Source: Alentia gelatinosa (taxonomy: Eukaryota > Annelida > Polychaeta > Phyllodocida > Polynoidae). Taken from it: DNA of 64,000 bases. Location of the stretch: assembly GCA_950022655.1 (NCBI GenBank), contig OX465584.1, positions 51,194,723 to 51,258,722 of the forward strand, in the 5' to 3' direction. Positions 2,700-63,100 of the stretch are shown piece by piece. Positions within the stretch are counted from its first letter, which is position 1; every line of letters begins with the position of its first letter. The position numbers and the translations under genes are program-made. The notes beneath the pieces are model-generated. The model was not told the origin of the DNA. It saw only the letters and a list, made by a program, of their open reading frames with translations, and did no database searches.

Positions 2700-2940
2700 T
2701 ACTGTTTTGTTGCAGAACCAGAACCAACATGTAAGAGCAGTTTGTTTTCTACTAAAATTGTGAAAGTTAGGAGACTAATTGCGGGCTATGTTTTCACCTT
2801 TAAAGGATCTGGACCAACATATGAAGGCGGCATATTTCTATGAAGGCGGCATATATCATTGTATCATTTGATATCATGGACAACATGTAAAGAGAGTAAA
2901 TATCAATGTGGGTGGGGCATGTCTATAAACAGTGCATTAT
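2700..2940 (+). repeat. Decayed partial copies of the LDLa exon at 3000
   Basis: Three fragments resemble the acceptor and first bases of the exon: near 2713 (gttgcagaaccagaaccaac + atgtaagagcag), near 2808 (ggatctggaccaacatatga + aggcgg) and near 2872. The last extends furthest: acatgtaaagagagtaaata, then tcaatgtg and gtctataaacagtgc. Confidence 0.75.
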
Positions 2941-2999
2941 TTGTGTGCACAAAAGCTGTGAACGTCCACTAATAGTTATTAATGTTTTTATCTTTACAG

Positions 3000-57100: not shown

Positions 57101-60100
57101 GTAAACTTGTTCGCTTGTAATTGACTATAACTGAAAAACATCGCGTGCGCGATGACGCTATACGTCAATAAAAAAAAGATTAAAAAAAGAAAAAAAGATT
57201 CGACCATCAAGCAATTCTTACACCTCCACTTGGATTATAAACTAACAATTATGTTTTTATTCTATTTTATTTTTTTCAATAAACAGTTCTTTCCGAGGAA
57301 AGTTCTTCGACTGTTTAATAATATTGTTTCTCTATGTGAATTCATCCTAGTACTACATCCTTAGATTCCCTGATAACGTATGACGTTTTACTGAGCAGGT
57401 ATGACCAACTTCCTTATTATCGCCCGTCGTACGGACATGCGCGCTGTGTCTCTGGACGTGGATTACTACGCGGACGTCGTCATCCCCGTGGGCGGACTGC
57501 AGAACGTCATCGCCGTAGACGTAGACCGCGCCGAAGGTAAGATAGAGGAGAGACCTATGAAACAAGTTCAGAGAGTGTTGTGAACCAAGGAAAAATTAGG
57601 TGTTGGAGAGATATTAATTCTGGCAACGCAATCAGCGTGAAGGTGAATCAATTGACCCTATTGAGGTATCCCGTAATCCGGTCTGTTTACAAGTTCCGGT
57701 GCTCGCTGGTTGCCGACGTGGTATTCTCCGATCCGGCCTGGAAGTAGGTGGCGCTACGGACCGCCTTGGCAGCCATTTTGGAGACACCTCCTCAGTGCTA
57801 AGCCTATGAGCCGTTTGAATGTCCATTTGTGATACTTTTTAAAGTGTGAGGATGTTTTAAGTACTTCTGAAGCAATTCTCCTGACAAAATTTGACTTCCC
57901 TGGTAACTTGAGATCAAACGATTGTGTGGAAGCCCCAGTTTTGACTATGAACGTGATGTCAACAAATCGTCGAAACAACCGTTTTTCTACGAGTTGGCAT
58001 GTCTAAATGATGTCTGAATGATGAAAATAATCCCATTTCAACTATCACATGTACAGAATGCATGTTTGAAGTTCGATTAATATAGGTTTTTTGCCATTTT
58101 AGACTATGACAGCGCTTTGTATTCACCAGCCAATATGGCGGATCGATCCGTTGTCAGGTGAATTTGCATAATTTGGAGGGTATTTTGAACCAGAAGTGTC
58201 CAGCCGGATCGAAGAATGATGATAGACCCTTGACTCGTAACCCAGAATTATCGCAGTTTAACGTATTTTATAAATATTCAAATCGGAAATCCAATATCAG
58301 AAATGGAAATTTCAGCTATTTCTTCATACAAATCCAAAATAACATTCAGGTTCTCCAAATATAAATAGGAAAACGATAGTTCATGCGGTCGTGGTCTGCC
58401 CAGCCAGCCGCCAGCGGAACTTGTATTTACCCTGGGCGATAATAGGGAGTTTAGTAACCTCTGGAGGGCGTATTTACCAGTGGGTACATGATCTCAGAAT
58501 ATTGCTGGAAAGCTGTGAGTATAGGGATCAAAAGGACTAAAATCTCAGAGATAGGATTGTGTTCGGGGTAGCTGACACACGTGTCAAGGAAAGACTACTT
58601 CGTGAGGCAGACCTGACATTAAGCAAGGCATTAGATATTTGTTATGCAGCAGAGGCTTGTATCCCATCGAGTTTGAGTCGCGTAGTAATTCACAAGGCGA
58701 AGCCACGTGAATTAGGTAGCGATTCAAATGAGATGGGATCTAGCTCTTACCCTAAACTTGAATGGGTTTCTGAATTCATCTCACCCTTCACATTGACTAA
58801 TGGGCTAACATTTGTGACATAAAATCCCATTGGATATTTTTCCTAAATATCTCAGGCGTTGGATATGAGTTCCCAGCGTTAAGTCTATGGAGAAAAAATA
58901 CCAGGGGTCAGATAATACGAAGAAGCAACTGCATCAAGATCCTCAGCCACTGAAAATAGGCTATGAGTTTTAGTAGCAGAGTTATTGTACAGTAGAACCC
59001 CGCCTAACGGACACCCCGCGTAAGCGGAACCCCGCGTTACCGGACACCTTTGCTCGGAACGGGTCTCTCTATTAGATGTTTATTTTAACCCCGTGTAAGC
59101 GATCACATCGCGTAAGCGGACACTTTTACCCGGAACGAAGGGTGTCCGCTTACGCGGGGTACTACTGTATATACAGGCAGTGTTTACTGGTCATGCATTC
59201 ATTCTGACTCATGTATCTGTAGACAAATTGTACGGGTCATTCATTCATTCCCACTCTCATCTCCAATATTCTTAATTTGCAGGTAAAGTGTACTGGTCAG
59301 ACAGCGTACTCGACAAGATCCAGAGGTCGAACCTGGACGGGTCGGAGGTGGAGGACGTGATGATTGACGGGTTGGACACGACGGACGGCCTCGCCATCGA
59401 CTCCACGGGCCGCAAGATCTACTGGACGGACACGGGCAGCAACCGCATCGAGGTGTCCACGCTGGACGGCCACATGAGGAAGGTGCTCGTCTGGGAGAAG
59501 CTGGACAGTCCCCGCGCACTCGCTCTCCACTATGACGCAGGGTGAGTGTGCTGTTTACGTGTTTAAACATGAATGTATCATCTAAAACATATATAAGTCA
59601 TCATAAGTCCTGCACACTCGCTCTCCACTATGACGCAGGGTGAGTGTGCTGTTTACGTGTTTAGATATGAATTAATCATCTAAAATATACATAAATTATC
59701 ATAACAGTCCCCGCGCACTCGCCCTCCACTATGACGCAGGGTGAGTGTGCTGTTTACGTCTTTAAACATGAATTTACTATCTAAAATGTATATAAGTCAC
59801 CAAAAGTCCTACACACTCACTCTCTACTGTGACGCAGGGTGAGTGTGCTGTTTACGTGTTTAAACATGAATGTATCATCTAAAACATATGTAGGTCATCA
59901 TAAGTCCTGCACACTCGCTCTCCACTATGACGCAGGGTGAGTGTGCTGTTTACGTCTTTAAACATGAATTTGTTGTCTGAAATGTATATAACTTATCATA
60001 ACAGCCCTGCACACTCGCTGTCCACTATGACGCAGGGTGATTGTGCTGTTTACGTGTTTGAACATAGATTTAGTATATAAGATATCCATAAATTATCATA

Positions 60101-63100
60101 ACAGTCCCTGTTCACTCGCTTCCAGTCCCTGTCCACTAAGATTCAACTAGTCTAGTTTATAAGTACAGTGGCAAAACTCGGCTCTGTACACCCTAGATGA
60201 TTATACGTAGTGTTCCCTGCTCTCAGCTAGTTTCTTTTTTAACTACGCATTCATGCCATTGAACGACCTTTCAACTACATGTTTAGATATGAATTTATTA
60301 CCTACAATATGCATGAATTATCATAACAGTCCCACCCACTCGCTCTCCTCTATATGACGCAGGGTGAGTGTGCTTTCTATGTGTTTAAAAATGAATGTAT
60401 TATCTACAATATATATGAATCATTACAAGTCTCAGAGAGGTATTGTTTGTGTGACCTTGATGCATTGACCTTGGTGTGACCTGTATTGTGTGACCTTCAG
60501 GTACATGTACTGGACAGACTGGGGTACAGAGCCGCGTATAGAGCGAGCTGACATGGACGGTGAGAACAGAGTGGTCATCGTGCACGATAACCTGGGCTGG
60601 CCGAACGGTCTGACGCTCGACCGACCCTCCGCCAGGATCATCTGGGCCGACGCCCGCACCGAGGTGAGTAGCGCCAGACGTTGGCTGGGTTCCGCCTGTG
60701 TACGCCGCTGGATATCTCCGCCGAGCCCCCTAGCGGATACCCCGGGAACCAGCGTACGCCAGACGGAACGTTGCTGGTGATTGGGTTATAAGAGGGGTGG
60801 GGCATACATGGTTGGTGATTGGGTTATAAGAGGGGTGAGTCATACATGGTTGGTGATTGAGTTATGAGAGGTGAGTCATACATGGTTGGTGATTGGGTTA
60901 TAAGAGGGGTGAGTCATACATGGTTCGTGATTGGGTTATAAGAGGGGTGAGTCATACATGGTTCGTGATTGGGTTATAAGAGGGGTGAGTCATTCATGGT
61001 TCGTGATTGGGTTATAAGAGGGGTGAGTCATACATGGTTCGTGATTGGATTATAAGAGGGGTGAGTCATTCATGGTTCGTGATTGGGTTATAAGAGGGGT
61101 GAGTCATACATGGTTCGTGATTGGGTTATAAGAGGGGTGAGTCATTCATGGTTCTTGATTGGGTTATAAGAGGGGTGAGTCATACATGGTTCGTGAGTGA
61201 GCTTTGGGAAGGATGGCTCGTATAATATTAGTATTATATTGCCAGAAGAATGGCTCGTATATCATTAGTATTATAATGTGGGTGATTCAGTTATAAGAAA
61301 GATGGCTTGTATATCATTTGTATTATATTGTCATTGATTGAGTTATGAGAAGGATGGCACGTACCTTAAAGTATTATCATGTTGGTGATTGGGTTATAAA
61401 CACGATGGCTTGGACATTAGTTTTATATACATGTGTATGTAGTTATAAGAAAGATACCTCATACACTATTATATTGAGCAGTGCTTTAGTTATTAGAAGG
61501 ATGGCTTTTGCATTATCATTATATTGTCAGTGATCTAGGTATAGGAAGGATGGCGCGTGCATTAACAGTATATTATAGATGATTGACTTATAAGAAAGAT
61601 GGCTTGTGCATTAGTATAATATTATCAGGGATTATCAGTTATTAGAAGGATGGCTTCAACATCAATATTACATTGACAGTGATTGTGTGATTATGTTTTA
61701 GGTGATTGTATGATTATGTTTTAGGTGATTGTGTGATTATGTTTTAGGTGATTGTGTGATTATGTTTTAGGTGATTGTGTGATTATGTTTTAGGTGATTG
61801 TGTGATTATGCTTTAGGTGATTGTGTGATTATGTTTTAGGTGATTGTGTGATTATGTTTTAGGTGATTGCGTGATTATATTTAGGTGATTGCGTAATTAT
61901 GTTTCAGGCGATTGTGTGAATATGTTTTAAGTAATTGTGTGATTATGTTTTAGGTAATTGTGTGATTATATTCAAGGTGATTGTGTGATTATGTTTCAGG
62001 TGATTGAGTGTTCTGACCTGAACGGAAACTACCGGCGGATCCTGGTGACCAGCGTGCCACATCCGTACGGCCTGACGATCGCCGGAAACTACATCTACTG
62101 GACGGACTGGCAGACCAAGTCCATCCACCGAGCCAACAAGGACACGGGCAGCGAGATGGTGGAGGTGCGCAAACACCTTGCCAGTCTCATGGACATCCAC
62201 GCCGTGCAGATGGAGAACGTCGGTCAGTACCTCACGTCATAGAGGGAAACTATGTCCCGGTGAAAGTAGGTCAAAGTTATGAGGTAAGGATCGAAAAATG
62301 ACTGCCCCACGCCTGGTTTGGCCGAGGGGAGTATTTGTTTCGATCCGAGTAACTGTGACATATTTTCTCTGGGACTTGGTTTCTCTATTCCTATATGCCT
62401 TCAAATGTCGATATAGATGAAGGCTTCTTTACCTGCGATTATCCAAGAATCCATAGCCACCCTTATTGGGAAAATTATCGGTCAACCTGGGACGAAAACC
62501 TCAGCCCAGCACATGTCTAGAAAGTTTAAAGAAAAAGACCAAAGTACAAAGATGGGAATGAGCAATGGAGATGGTGTGAAAAGAATTAGCTGTCACATCA
62601 ATGCTTTTTTGCTTTTTACTATTTGTGTACACTAGAGCTCGGCCTCAATCCTTTCTTTGAGAATTTCAGCAGATTCACTTTTTTGGCAATTTACAGATAG
62701 CGAGTTCCAGAGCCTGGCTCCTCGCAGATAGGGGCAATTTATAGATAGAAGTGCTTCTAGTATGAACTTTTCTTCCTTATCTTGTCGCTTTAAAGGTTGT
62801 ATCTATCCAACTAATTACATTCCTATGTTTAAACATTAGCACACACTTGTTAATTGTTTCTTTCTTTTAAACAAACCCACGTCGTACCGGGTACTGGGGA
62901 ACTCACCCCAAAGCAAAGTCGCCCCGGGATTTCATGGACAATTCGCCCTATTTTGGAAAAGTCGCATAGTAATTTAGTATCAAATATATGTTCACTTGAA
63001 CCGGCAATATTACCATTCTCTTGTAAATGATGTTGCAACAGATCAGACAAATATATTGCAGTGATATTCTTGGTTTACACCACAAAACTCAAATAATCAG

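What the first reader, a model, noticed from the sequence alone, without database searches (positions are those of the whole stretch)
2700..62000. LRP4 introns carry tandem or decayed copies of their own exon-intron junctions
At a dozen LRP4 exons the repeat in the adjoining intron includes the exon's last or first bases plus the splice site: donor-side at 34062, 37201, 43069, 44459 and 59541; acceptor-side at 3000, 33527, 34986, 47132, 48533, 51591, 53639 and 62000. The unit differs at each site, so these are independent events, not one repeat family. Recurrent amplification seeded at splice junctions, as from a break or replication slip there, is the simplest reading. I recall, unverified, a report of minisatellites spanning exon borders at the amphioxus Adh locus; if so, this shows the process at many sites of one gene.
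Basis: partly seen in the sequence, partly recalled or inferred. Interest (0 to 1): 0.9.

Follow-up and report, generated by a model that had tools for sequence, protein, structure and literature searches.

The report
Introns tiled with own splice junctions
In a marine annelid's LRP4 gene, 11 of 40 exon edges have repeated or decayed copies of that same edge in the neighbouring intron, ten of them with the splice site; the copies likely arose by repeated local duplication and are likely ignored by splicing, a phenomenon described before in amphioxus.

Summary
Twenty LRP4 exons (40 junctions) were mapped. Ten junctions have junction-crossing copies in their own intron, scoring above every one of 55,220-57,256 non-adjacent intron positions. 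An eleventh (34986) has a decayed copy that lost the splice site. The window is not amphioxus: its 1.23-Gb genome has a mitochondrial COX1 97% identical to a Phyllodocida cluster and 91% to scale worms. The pattern is the 'mirage' minisatellite described in amphioxus (PMC3087553, PMC3902484), here in an annelid. It recurs in other LRP-like genes of this genome (22 of 110 junctions) but hardly in myosin/kinesin genes (1 of 57, an exon added after its array was seen). Array ends pile up within 30 nt of LRP-type splice junctions (6.5-fold and 7.5-fold), while repetitiveness itself peaks 150-200 nt inside the intron. Junction-biased birth and a selection barrier both remain possible. No transcript or population data were available.

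The parts
3000..63329 (+). LRP4 gene part, 20 exons E1-E20: 3000-3119, 31778-31900, 33527-33652, 33937-34062, 34986-35111, 36971-37201, 38484-38640, 42852-43069, 44283-44459, 45640-45765, 47132-47340, 48533-48720, 51591-51792, 53639-53828, 56618-56749, 57399-57536, 59283-59541, 60501-60663, 62000-62222, 63204-63329; all edges AG/GT
   Evidence: AG/GT, lengths; phases; collinear with solved LRP4
2716..2935 (+). three decayed copies of the E1 acceptor edge (pseudo-junctions 2716, 2806, 2872), two with AG
   Evidence: (52 against max 29)
33043..33521 (+). E3 acceptor mirage: junction copy at 33043 and array 33303-33521 whose 95-nt unit holds exon-like sequence; the array ends 5 nt before the exon
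   Evidence: (39 against max 24)
34056..34617 (+). E4 donor mirage: 37-nt unit, 15.3 TRF copies, starts 7 nt inside the exon; 9 copies scored, all 9 keep GT
34769..34899 (+). decayed copy of the E5 acceptor region with the splice site itself deleted
37202..38364 (+). E6 donor: three decayed copies of the exon end (pseudo-junctions 37346, 38181, 38332), two with GT
43064..43981 (+). E8 donor mirage: 51-nt unit, 17.8 TRF copies, starts 6 nt inside the exon; 11 copies scored, 8 keep GT
44468..45267 (+). E9 donor mirage: 67-nt unit plus more distant copies (pseudo-junctions to 45187), up to 22 exon nt per copy; 4 copies scored, 4 keep GT
46474..47148 (+). E11 acceptor mirage: 82-nt unit, TRF array 46771-47148 reaching 17 nt into the exon, further copies upstream; 6 copies scored, 4 keep AG
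48284..48528 (+). array abutting the E12 acceptor (84-nt unit, 3.0 copies), ends 4 nt before the exon, no exon bases found
51434..51470 (+). single copy of the E13 acceptor edge (36 of 37 aligned bases identical, gapped)
52796..53632 (+). array abutting the E14 acceptor (59-nt unit, 14.3 copies), ends 6 nt before the exon, no exon bases found
59505..60124 (+). E17 donor mirage: 98-nt unit, 5.9 TRF copies, starts 37 nt inside the exon; 6 copies scored, all 6 keep GT
61679..62010 (+). E19 acceptor mirage: 23-nt unit, 14.5 TRF copies, ends 11 nt inside the exon; 13 copies scored within 1.5 kb, 11 keep AG

Best explanation
At 11 of 40 splice junctions of this annelid LRP4 gene the neighbouring intron holds tandem or decayed copies of the junction itself, that is, 'mirage' minisatellites, which likely arise by repeated local tandem duplication with one breakpoint near the splice site and likely persist because splicing is predicted to keep using the exon-side copy. 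Shown: the copies, their site-specific units, the position of array ends, and the survival of AG/GT in 144 of 182 scored copies over 33 junctions. Inferred: a segment holding the exon's edge and the start or end of the intron is duplicated (slippage or unequal exchange). The duplicate lies on the intron side, so the message would be unchanged and selection would not remove it. The array then grows, decays and lengthens the intron. Exon definition (pairing of splice sites across the short exon) would be what lets the spliceosome ignore the decoys.
For: Junction copies far above controls at 10 of 40 junctions plus one decayed; pooled false-positive rate 4 of 1035. 9 of 17 arrays (TRF score 100 or more, exon-dense part) end between 10 nt short of and 60 nt into an exon, 1.85 expected, P=5e-5; density peak within 30 nt of junctions in LRP4 and in 110 junctions of other LRP-like genes. 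Of arrays with about three or more copies, 19 of 80 in the two LRP groups end near a junction, 3.9 expected; 0 of 1000 simulations reached the observed number in either group. The consensus units at 34062, 43069, 59541 and 62000 contain the exon bases and the splice site. The exon-side copy is the one consistent with the protein: the reading matches solved LRP4 with almost equal lengths (query 1-427 to 268-698; 2-649 to 700-1348), and the displayed part shows no insertion at 47132, 51591 or 59541; the other edges were not displayed. AG/GT is not matched worse than its neighbours. In 10 of 14 arrays the copies resemble the real junction more than each other, as if it were the conserved source (copies were picked by likeness to the junction, which favours this). 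By the coordinates the mirage arrays alone fill about 60%, 75%, 61% and 24% of introns E4-E5, E8-E9, E17-E18 and E18-E19.
Against: The junction is not the most repeated position: 17% (LRP4) and 21% (other genes) of junctions against 45-50% and 30-31% of positions 150-200 nt inside the intron. Two arrays (48533, 53639) abut without exon bases. In myosin/kinesin genes 1 of 57 junctions has it, and that exon was added after seeing its array, so 0 of 55 without it. Two-copy duplications, the youngest class, lie near junctions only weakly more often than at random (6 of 38, about 2.0 expected over three groups, none significant alone). No RNA evidence that decoys are skipped.
Confidence: 0.62

Rival explanations
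1. Selection barrier: tandem arrays arise evenly in introns and spread outward by taking in flanking DNA; they stop at exons because coding sequence cannot be disrupted, so their ends pile up there and sometimes take in a few exon bases.
For: Repetitiveness is highest 150-200 nt inside introns; two arrays stop 4 and 6 nt short of the exon; ends scatter on both sides of the junction; two-copy duplications show only a weak junction excess.
Against: The consensus units at 34062, 43069, 59541 and 62000 contain the exon bases and splice site, and copies with exon bases were scored 9, 11, 6 and 13 times where TRF counts 15.3, 17.8, 5.9 and 14.5 units (an exon match was required for scoring, so units without it go uncounted). 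This is expected if the first unit already spanned the junction; later homogenisation could mimic it.
Confidence: 0.28
2. Chance: the genome is so rich in minisatellites that some overlap exon edges by coincidence.
For: TRF arrays of score 100 or more cover 14% of the window and 0-53% of seven other loci.
Against: Random placement allowing up to 60 nt of exon overlap gives 1.85 near-junction arrays against 9, and random placement gives 3.9 against 19 in LRP-family genes.
Confidence: 0.05
3. The copies are a functional device: decoy splice sites kept to slow or regulate LRP4 splicing.
For: 144 of 182 scored copies keep AG or GT; in donor copies (44) GT is matched at 0.95 and 0.86, better than the intron bases just after it (0.61-0.84).
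Against: Donor GT is matched no better than the exon bases just before it (0.91-0.95), and acceptor AG (0.83, 0.88; 138 copies) like its neighbours. The three introns at the same place in the propellers differ: none at E7/E8, acceptor copies at E12/E13, donor copies at E17/E18.
Confidence: 0.05

Closest known systems
'Mirage' minisatellites of amphioxus (Adh3, globins BflGb6 and BflGb9, TnC, PGBD5); passages read in PMC3087553 and PMC3902484; the original Adh paper (PMC117041) is not held
   Different: Annelid, not cephalochordate; 11 junctions in one gene; measured against controls and sampled over other genes; no RT-PCR or length-polymorphism data here
Intron gain by tandem duplication of AG/GT-bearing segments (Rogers model, as cited in the passages of PMC3087553; potato RdRp case PMC4974935 seen in a search listing only)
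   Same: Tandem duplication carrying splice signals
   Different: Here the copies lie inside introns; at least the introns E7/E8, E12/E13 and E17/E18 look old (same place and phase 2 in three propellers)
Earthworm metallothionein intron-1 minisatellites (PMC12783039, passages read)
   Same: Annelid intronic minisatellites
   Different: No copies of a splice junction described in the passages seen; that paper does mention duplications of exon 4 absent from the final transcript

Membership tests
mirage minisatellite (amphioxus) | tandem repeat unit spans an exon-intron boundary | tested here: met
   10 of 40 LRP4 junctions by ungapped test, one more decayed
mirage minisatellite (amphioxus) | both donor and acceptor boundaries affected | tested here: met
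   LRP4 5 donors and 5 acceptors (6 with 34986)
mirage minisatellite (amphioxus) | many but not all copies keep AG/GT | tested here: met
   144 of 182 scored copies, 33 junctions
mirage minisatellite (amphioxus) | regular splicing is not disturbed | not testable with these tools
   no transcripts available; only protein collinearity
mirage minisatellite (amphioxus) | length instability between alleles or tissues | not testable with these tools
   one assembled genome
intron gain by tandem duplication | the intron itself is new and bounded by the duplicate | tested here: inconclusive
   introns E7/E8, E12/E13, E17/E18 share place and phase 2 between propellers, so these look old, and two of them hold mirages; the other introns and other species' gene structures were not tested
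dispersed mobile element | the same unit at many sites | tested here: not met
   no junction scored above 12 in non-adjacent introns except E18's edge (22)

The most novel reading that the evidence does not exclude
Splice junctions are birthplaces of minisatellites: a process tied to transcription or splicing repeatedly copies the exon edge into the intron, in annelids as in amphioxus, so that introns are in part built out of their own splice junctions and grow from the exon inward.
Probability: 0.3. Interest if true: 0.82.

Novelty: new member of a known kind. Interest (0 to 1): 0.6.

Why it matters
Mirage minisatellites were described in a handful of amphioxus genes. Finding them at about one junction in five of LRP-type genes of an annelid (32 of 150), with array ends concentrated within 30 nt of splice sites, makes the place where new tandem repeats are born a question that any chromosome-level annelid genome can answer. 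It also offers introns with up to twenty intact decoy splice sites for studying how the spliceosome picks the right copy, and bears on how introns change length.

Tried and rejected
Amphioxus origin: rejected. One dispersed repeat family: rejected by unit differences. Exon bases in the arrays at 48533 and 53639: looked for and not found. Selection on decoys: no clear sign. Direction of growth from similarity against distance: mixed, negative trend in 9 of 14 arrays, two with P below 0.05 and of opposite sign. E17 acceptor (59283) as a further mirage: borderline, 10.0 against a control maximum of 10.5, not counted. Known RNA families in the window: none at gathering threshold. At least two of the 22 LRP-like hits (C11a 70988, 71158; spacing 169-170, full 60-nt exon match) look like tandem exon copies rather than minisatellites, and one (C6b 11335; 4 exon nt, GT not kept) is weak. 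Acceptors are hit more often than donors over all loci (22 of 102 against 11 of 105, P=0.037), not in LRP4 (5 and 5).
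Full report
Gene and exons. The + strand carries 20 exons of an LRP4 gene between 3000 and 63329, all with AG before and GT after and compatible phases. The spliced reading (1119 aa) aligns as one chain to solved LRP4, residues 229-1349, and pieces of it to 268-698 and 700-1348. The best-scoring proteins are an unnamed product of Owenia fusiformis (71%) and LRP4-like of the nemertean Lineus longissimus (68%); a Branchiostoma cluster stands at 65% (best 120 of 3904 listed).

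Which animal. The window lies at C6:51194723-51258722 of a 1,234,393,884-base assembly. Its contig C101 encodes a COX1 in the invertebrate mitochondrial code that is 97% identical to a UniRef cluster labelled Phyllodocida and 90-91% to Branchipolynoe and Branchinotogluma, both Polynoidae. The gene order around it, read by eye, looks like the annelid pattern as I recall it. So the animal is an annelid, likely a scale worm, and not amphioxus.

Check of the observation. For each of the 40 junctions I asked whether the sequence around the junction, exon side and intron side together, recurs in the adjoining intron better than anywhere in the other introns. Ten do: acceptors 3000, 33527, 47132, 51591, 62000 and donors 34062, 37201, 43069, 44459, 59541. 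A gapped exon-only search adds acceptor 34986 (29 against a maximum of 25 over 124 controls), where the intron copy has lost the splice site. For 48533 and 53639 the arrays abut the exon without entering it. A pooled version of the test gives 4 hits of 1035 when fed non-adjacent pieces.

Anatomy. TRF units at the array-type sites are 23-98 nt. Five arrays cross into the exon by TRF, by 6 nt (43069), 7 (34062), 11 (62000), 17 (47132) and 37 (59541); decayed larger copies at 3000, 33527 and 37201 match about 50-60 exon nt, near the 60-nt limit of the scoring. By the coordinates, mirage arrays alone fill about 60%, 75%, 61% and 24% of introns E4-E5, E8-E9, E17-E18 and E18-E19; with all other TRF arrays it is 73%, 75%, 61% and 88%, but I have not shown that those others derive from the junction. 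The real site is at the exon end of each array; where the protein alignment was displayed (47132, 51591, 59541) it has no insertion there, and overall lengths agree within a few residues. In E17 the reading frame meets a stop directly after the real donor, so use of a decoy there would truncate the protein.

Is the junction special? Two measures disagree in part. Array ends: 9 of 17 arrays of the exon-dense part end between 10 nt short of and 60 nt into an exon, against 1.85 when placed at random with the same tolerance (P=5e-5); ends crossing at least 4 nt into an exon are 5 against 1.49 (P=0.014). The density of array ends within 30 nt of a junction is 8 in 2400 nt against 11 in 21,536 nt farther in. 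Repetitiveness: the share of positions with a local copy rises in LRP4 from 0-15% in the exon to 17% at the junction, 38% at +100, 50% at +150 and falls to 18% at +700; in the other LRP-like genes it is 8-21% in the exon, 21% at the junction, 31% at +150, 21% at +700. Arrays that start at the junction and run inward would give this shape, but so would arrays that run outward and stop there.

Other genes of the same genome. In LRP-like genes on C4, C6 and C11 (62 exons found with LRP4 proteins) 22 of 110 junctions have junction copies (23 with the first set of control pieces), and array ends show the same peak (15 in 6600 nt against 18 in 59,271 nt, P=1.8e-7). In myosin and kinesin genes 1 of 57 junctions does: an acceptor of a myosin gene on C4 with ten copies of a 54-nt unit. 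That exon was added after its array was seen; without it the count is 0 of 55. The difference between LRP-family and motor genes is clear (32 of 150 against 1 of 57, P=2e-4). Part of it may be scarcity of arrays (4 of 11 motor loci have no TRF array of score 100 or more), but others such as L037 and L038 are array-rich and still show none at their junctions. So I claim the pattern for LRP-type genes and one myosin junction, not for the whole genome. The automatic exon edges agree with my hand edges in LRP4 for 18 of 20 acceptors and 16 of 20 donors (one search used a slightly wider inward search).

Decoys. Over 33 junctions 182 copies were scored and 144 keep AG or GT. Acceptor AG is matched like its neighbours (138 copies); donor GT (44 copies) is matched like the exon bases before it and better than the intron bases after it. 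I see no clear selection to keep or to remove decoys. In 10 of 14 arrays with five or more copies the copies resemble the real junction more than each other, which fits a conserved source, but the copies were chosen by likeness to it.

Explanation. I favour repeated tandem duplication with one breakpoint near the splice site, tolerated because the extra copies fall on the intron side. Shown: copies, unit individuality, place of array ends, survival of splice signals. Inferred: slippage or unequal exchange, normal splicing, neutrality. The barrier rival is live, because two-copy duplications near junctions are 6 of 38 against about 2.0 expected, too few to decide.

Known work. Passages of PMC3087553 describe mirages in two amphioxus globin genes and cite Adh3 and other loci; a passage of PMC3902484 adds PGBD5 and cites TnC. 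The listings of my searches of a partial library showed no such report for an annelid or another phylum; that is a statement about these searches only. The kind is therefore known; the member, its animal phylum, its density in one gene and the comparison with controls are, within these searches, new.

Noticed in passing
window 20118-30133: Two reverse-transcriptase reading frames (27074-30133 +, 20118-22595 -) and a NADAR-domain frame (23541-24848 -) inside the 28.7-kb intron between E1 and E2.
   Followed up: partly
window 7364-7691, 38694-39082 and near 47430; L036:919-1416; L030:4370-4641: A dispersed tandem unit of about 90 nt with the same core sequence in several loci (47430 by eye), at 38694 preceded by a tRNA-like promoter motif (recalled); unlike the mirages it is one family.
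   Followed up: no
window 47852-47984, 51994-52340, 58997-59048; L035:651-753: A 16-17-nt unit close to ACCCCGCTTAAGGGGAC recurs in several introns and another locus, perhaps the end of a small DNA transposon.
   Followed up: no
window 60777-61684: Arrays in the E18-E19 intron whose units also hold GTGATT(G), the first bases of E19; possibly older generations of the E19 mirage, but the same motif occurs in an unrelated array at 18815-19048.
   Followed up: no
L038:2119-3204 and 731-1075: Very G-rich or C-rich minisatellites flanking a kinesin exon at C8:0.56 Mb.
   Followed up: no
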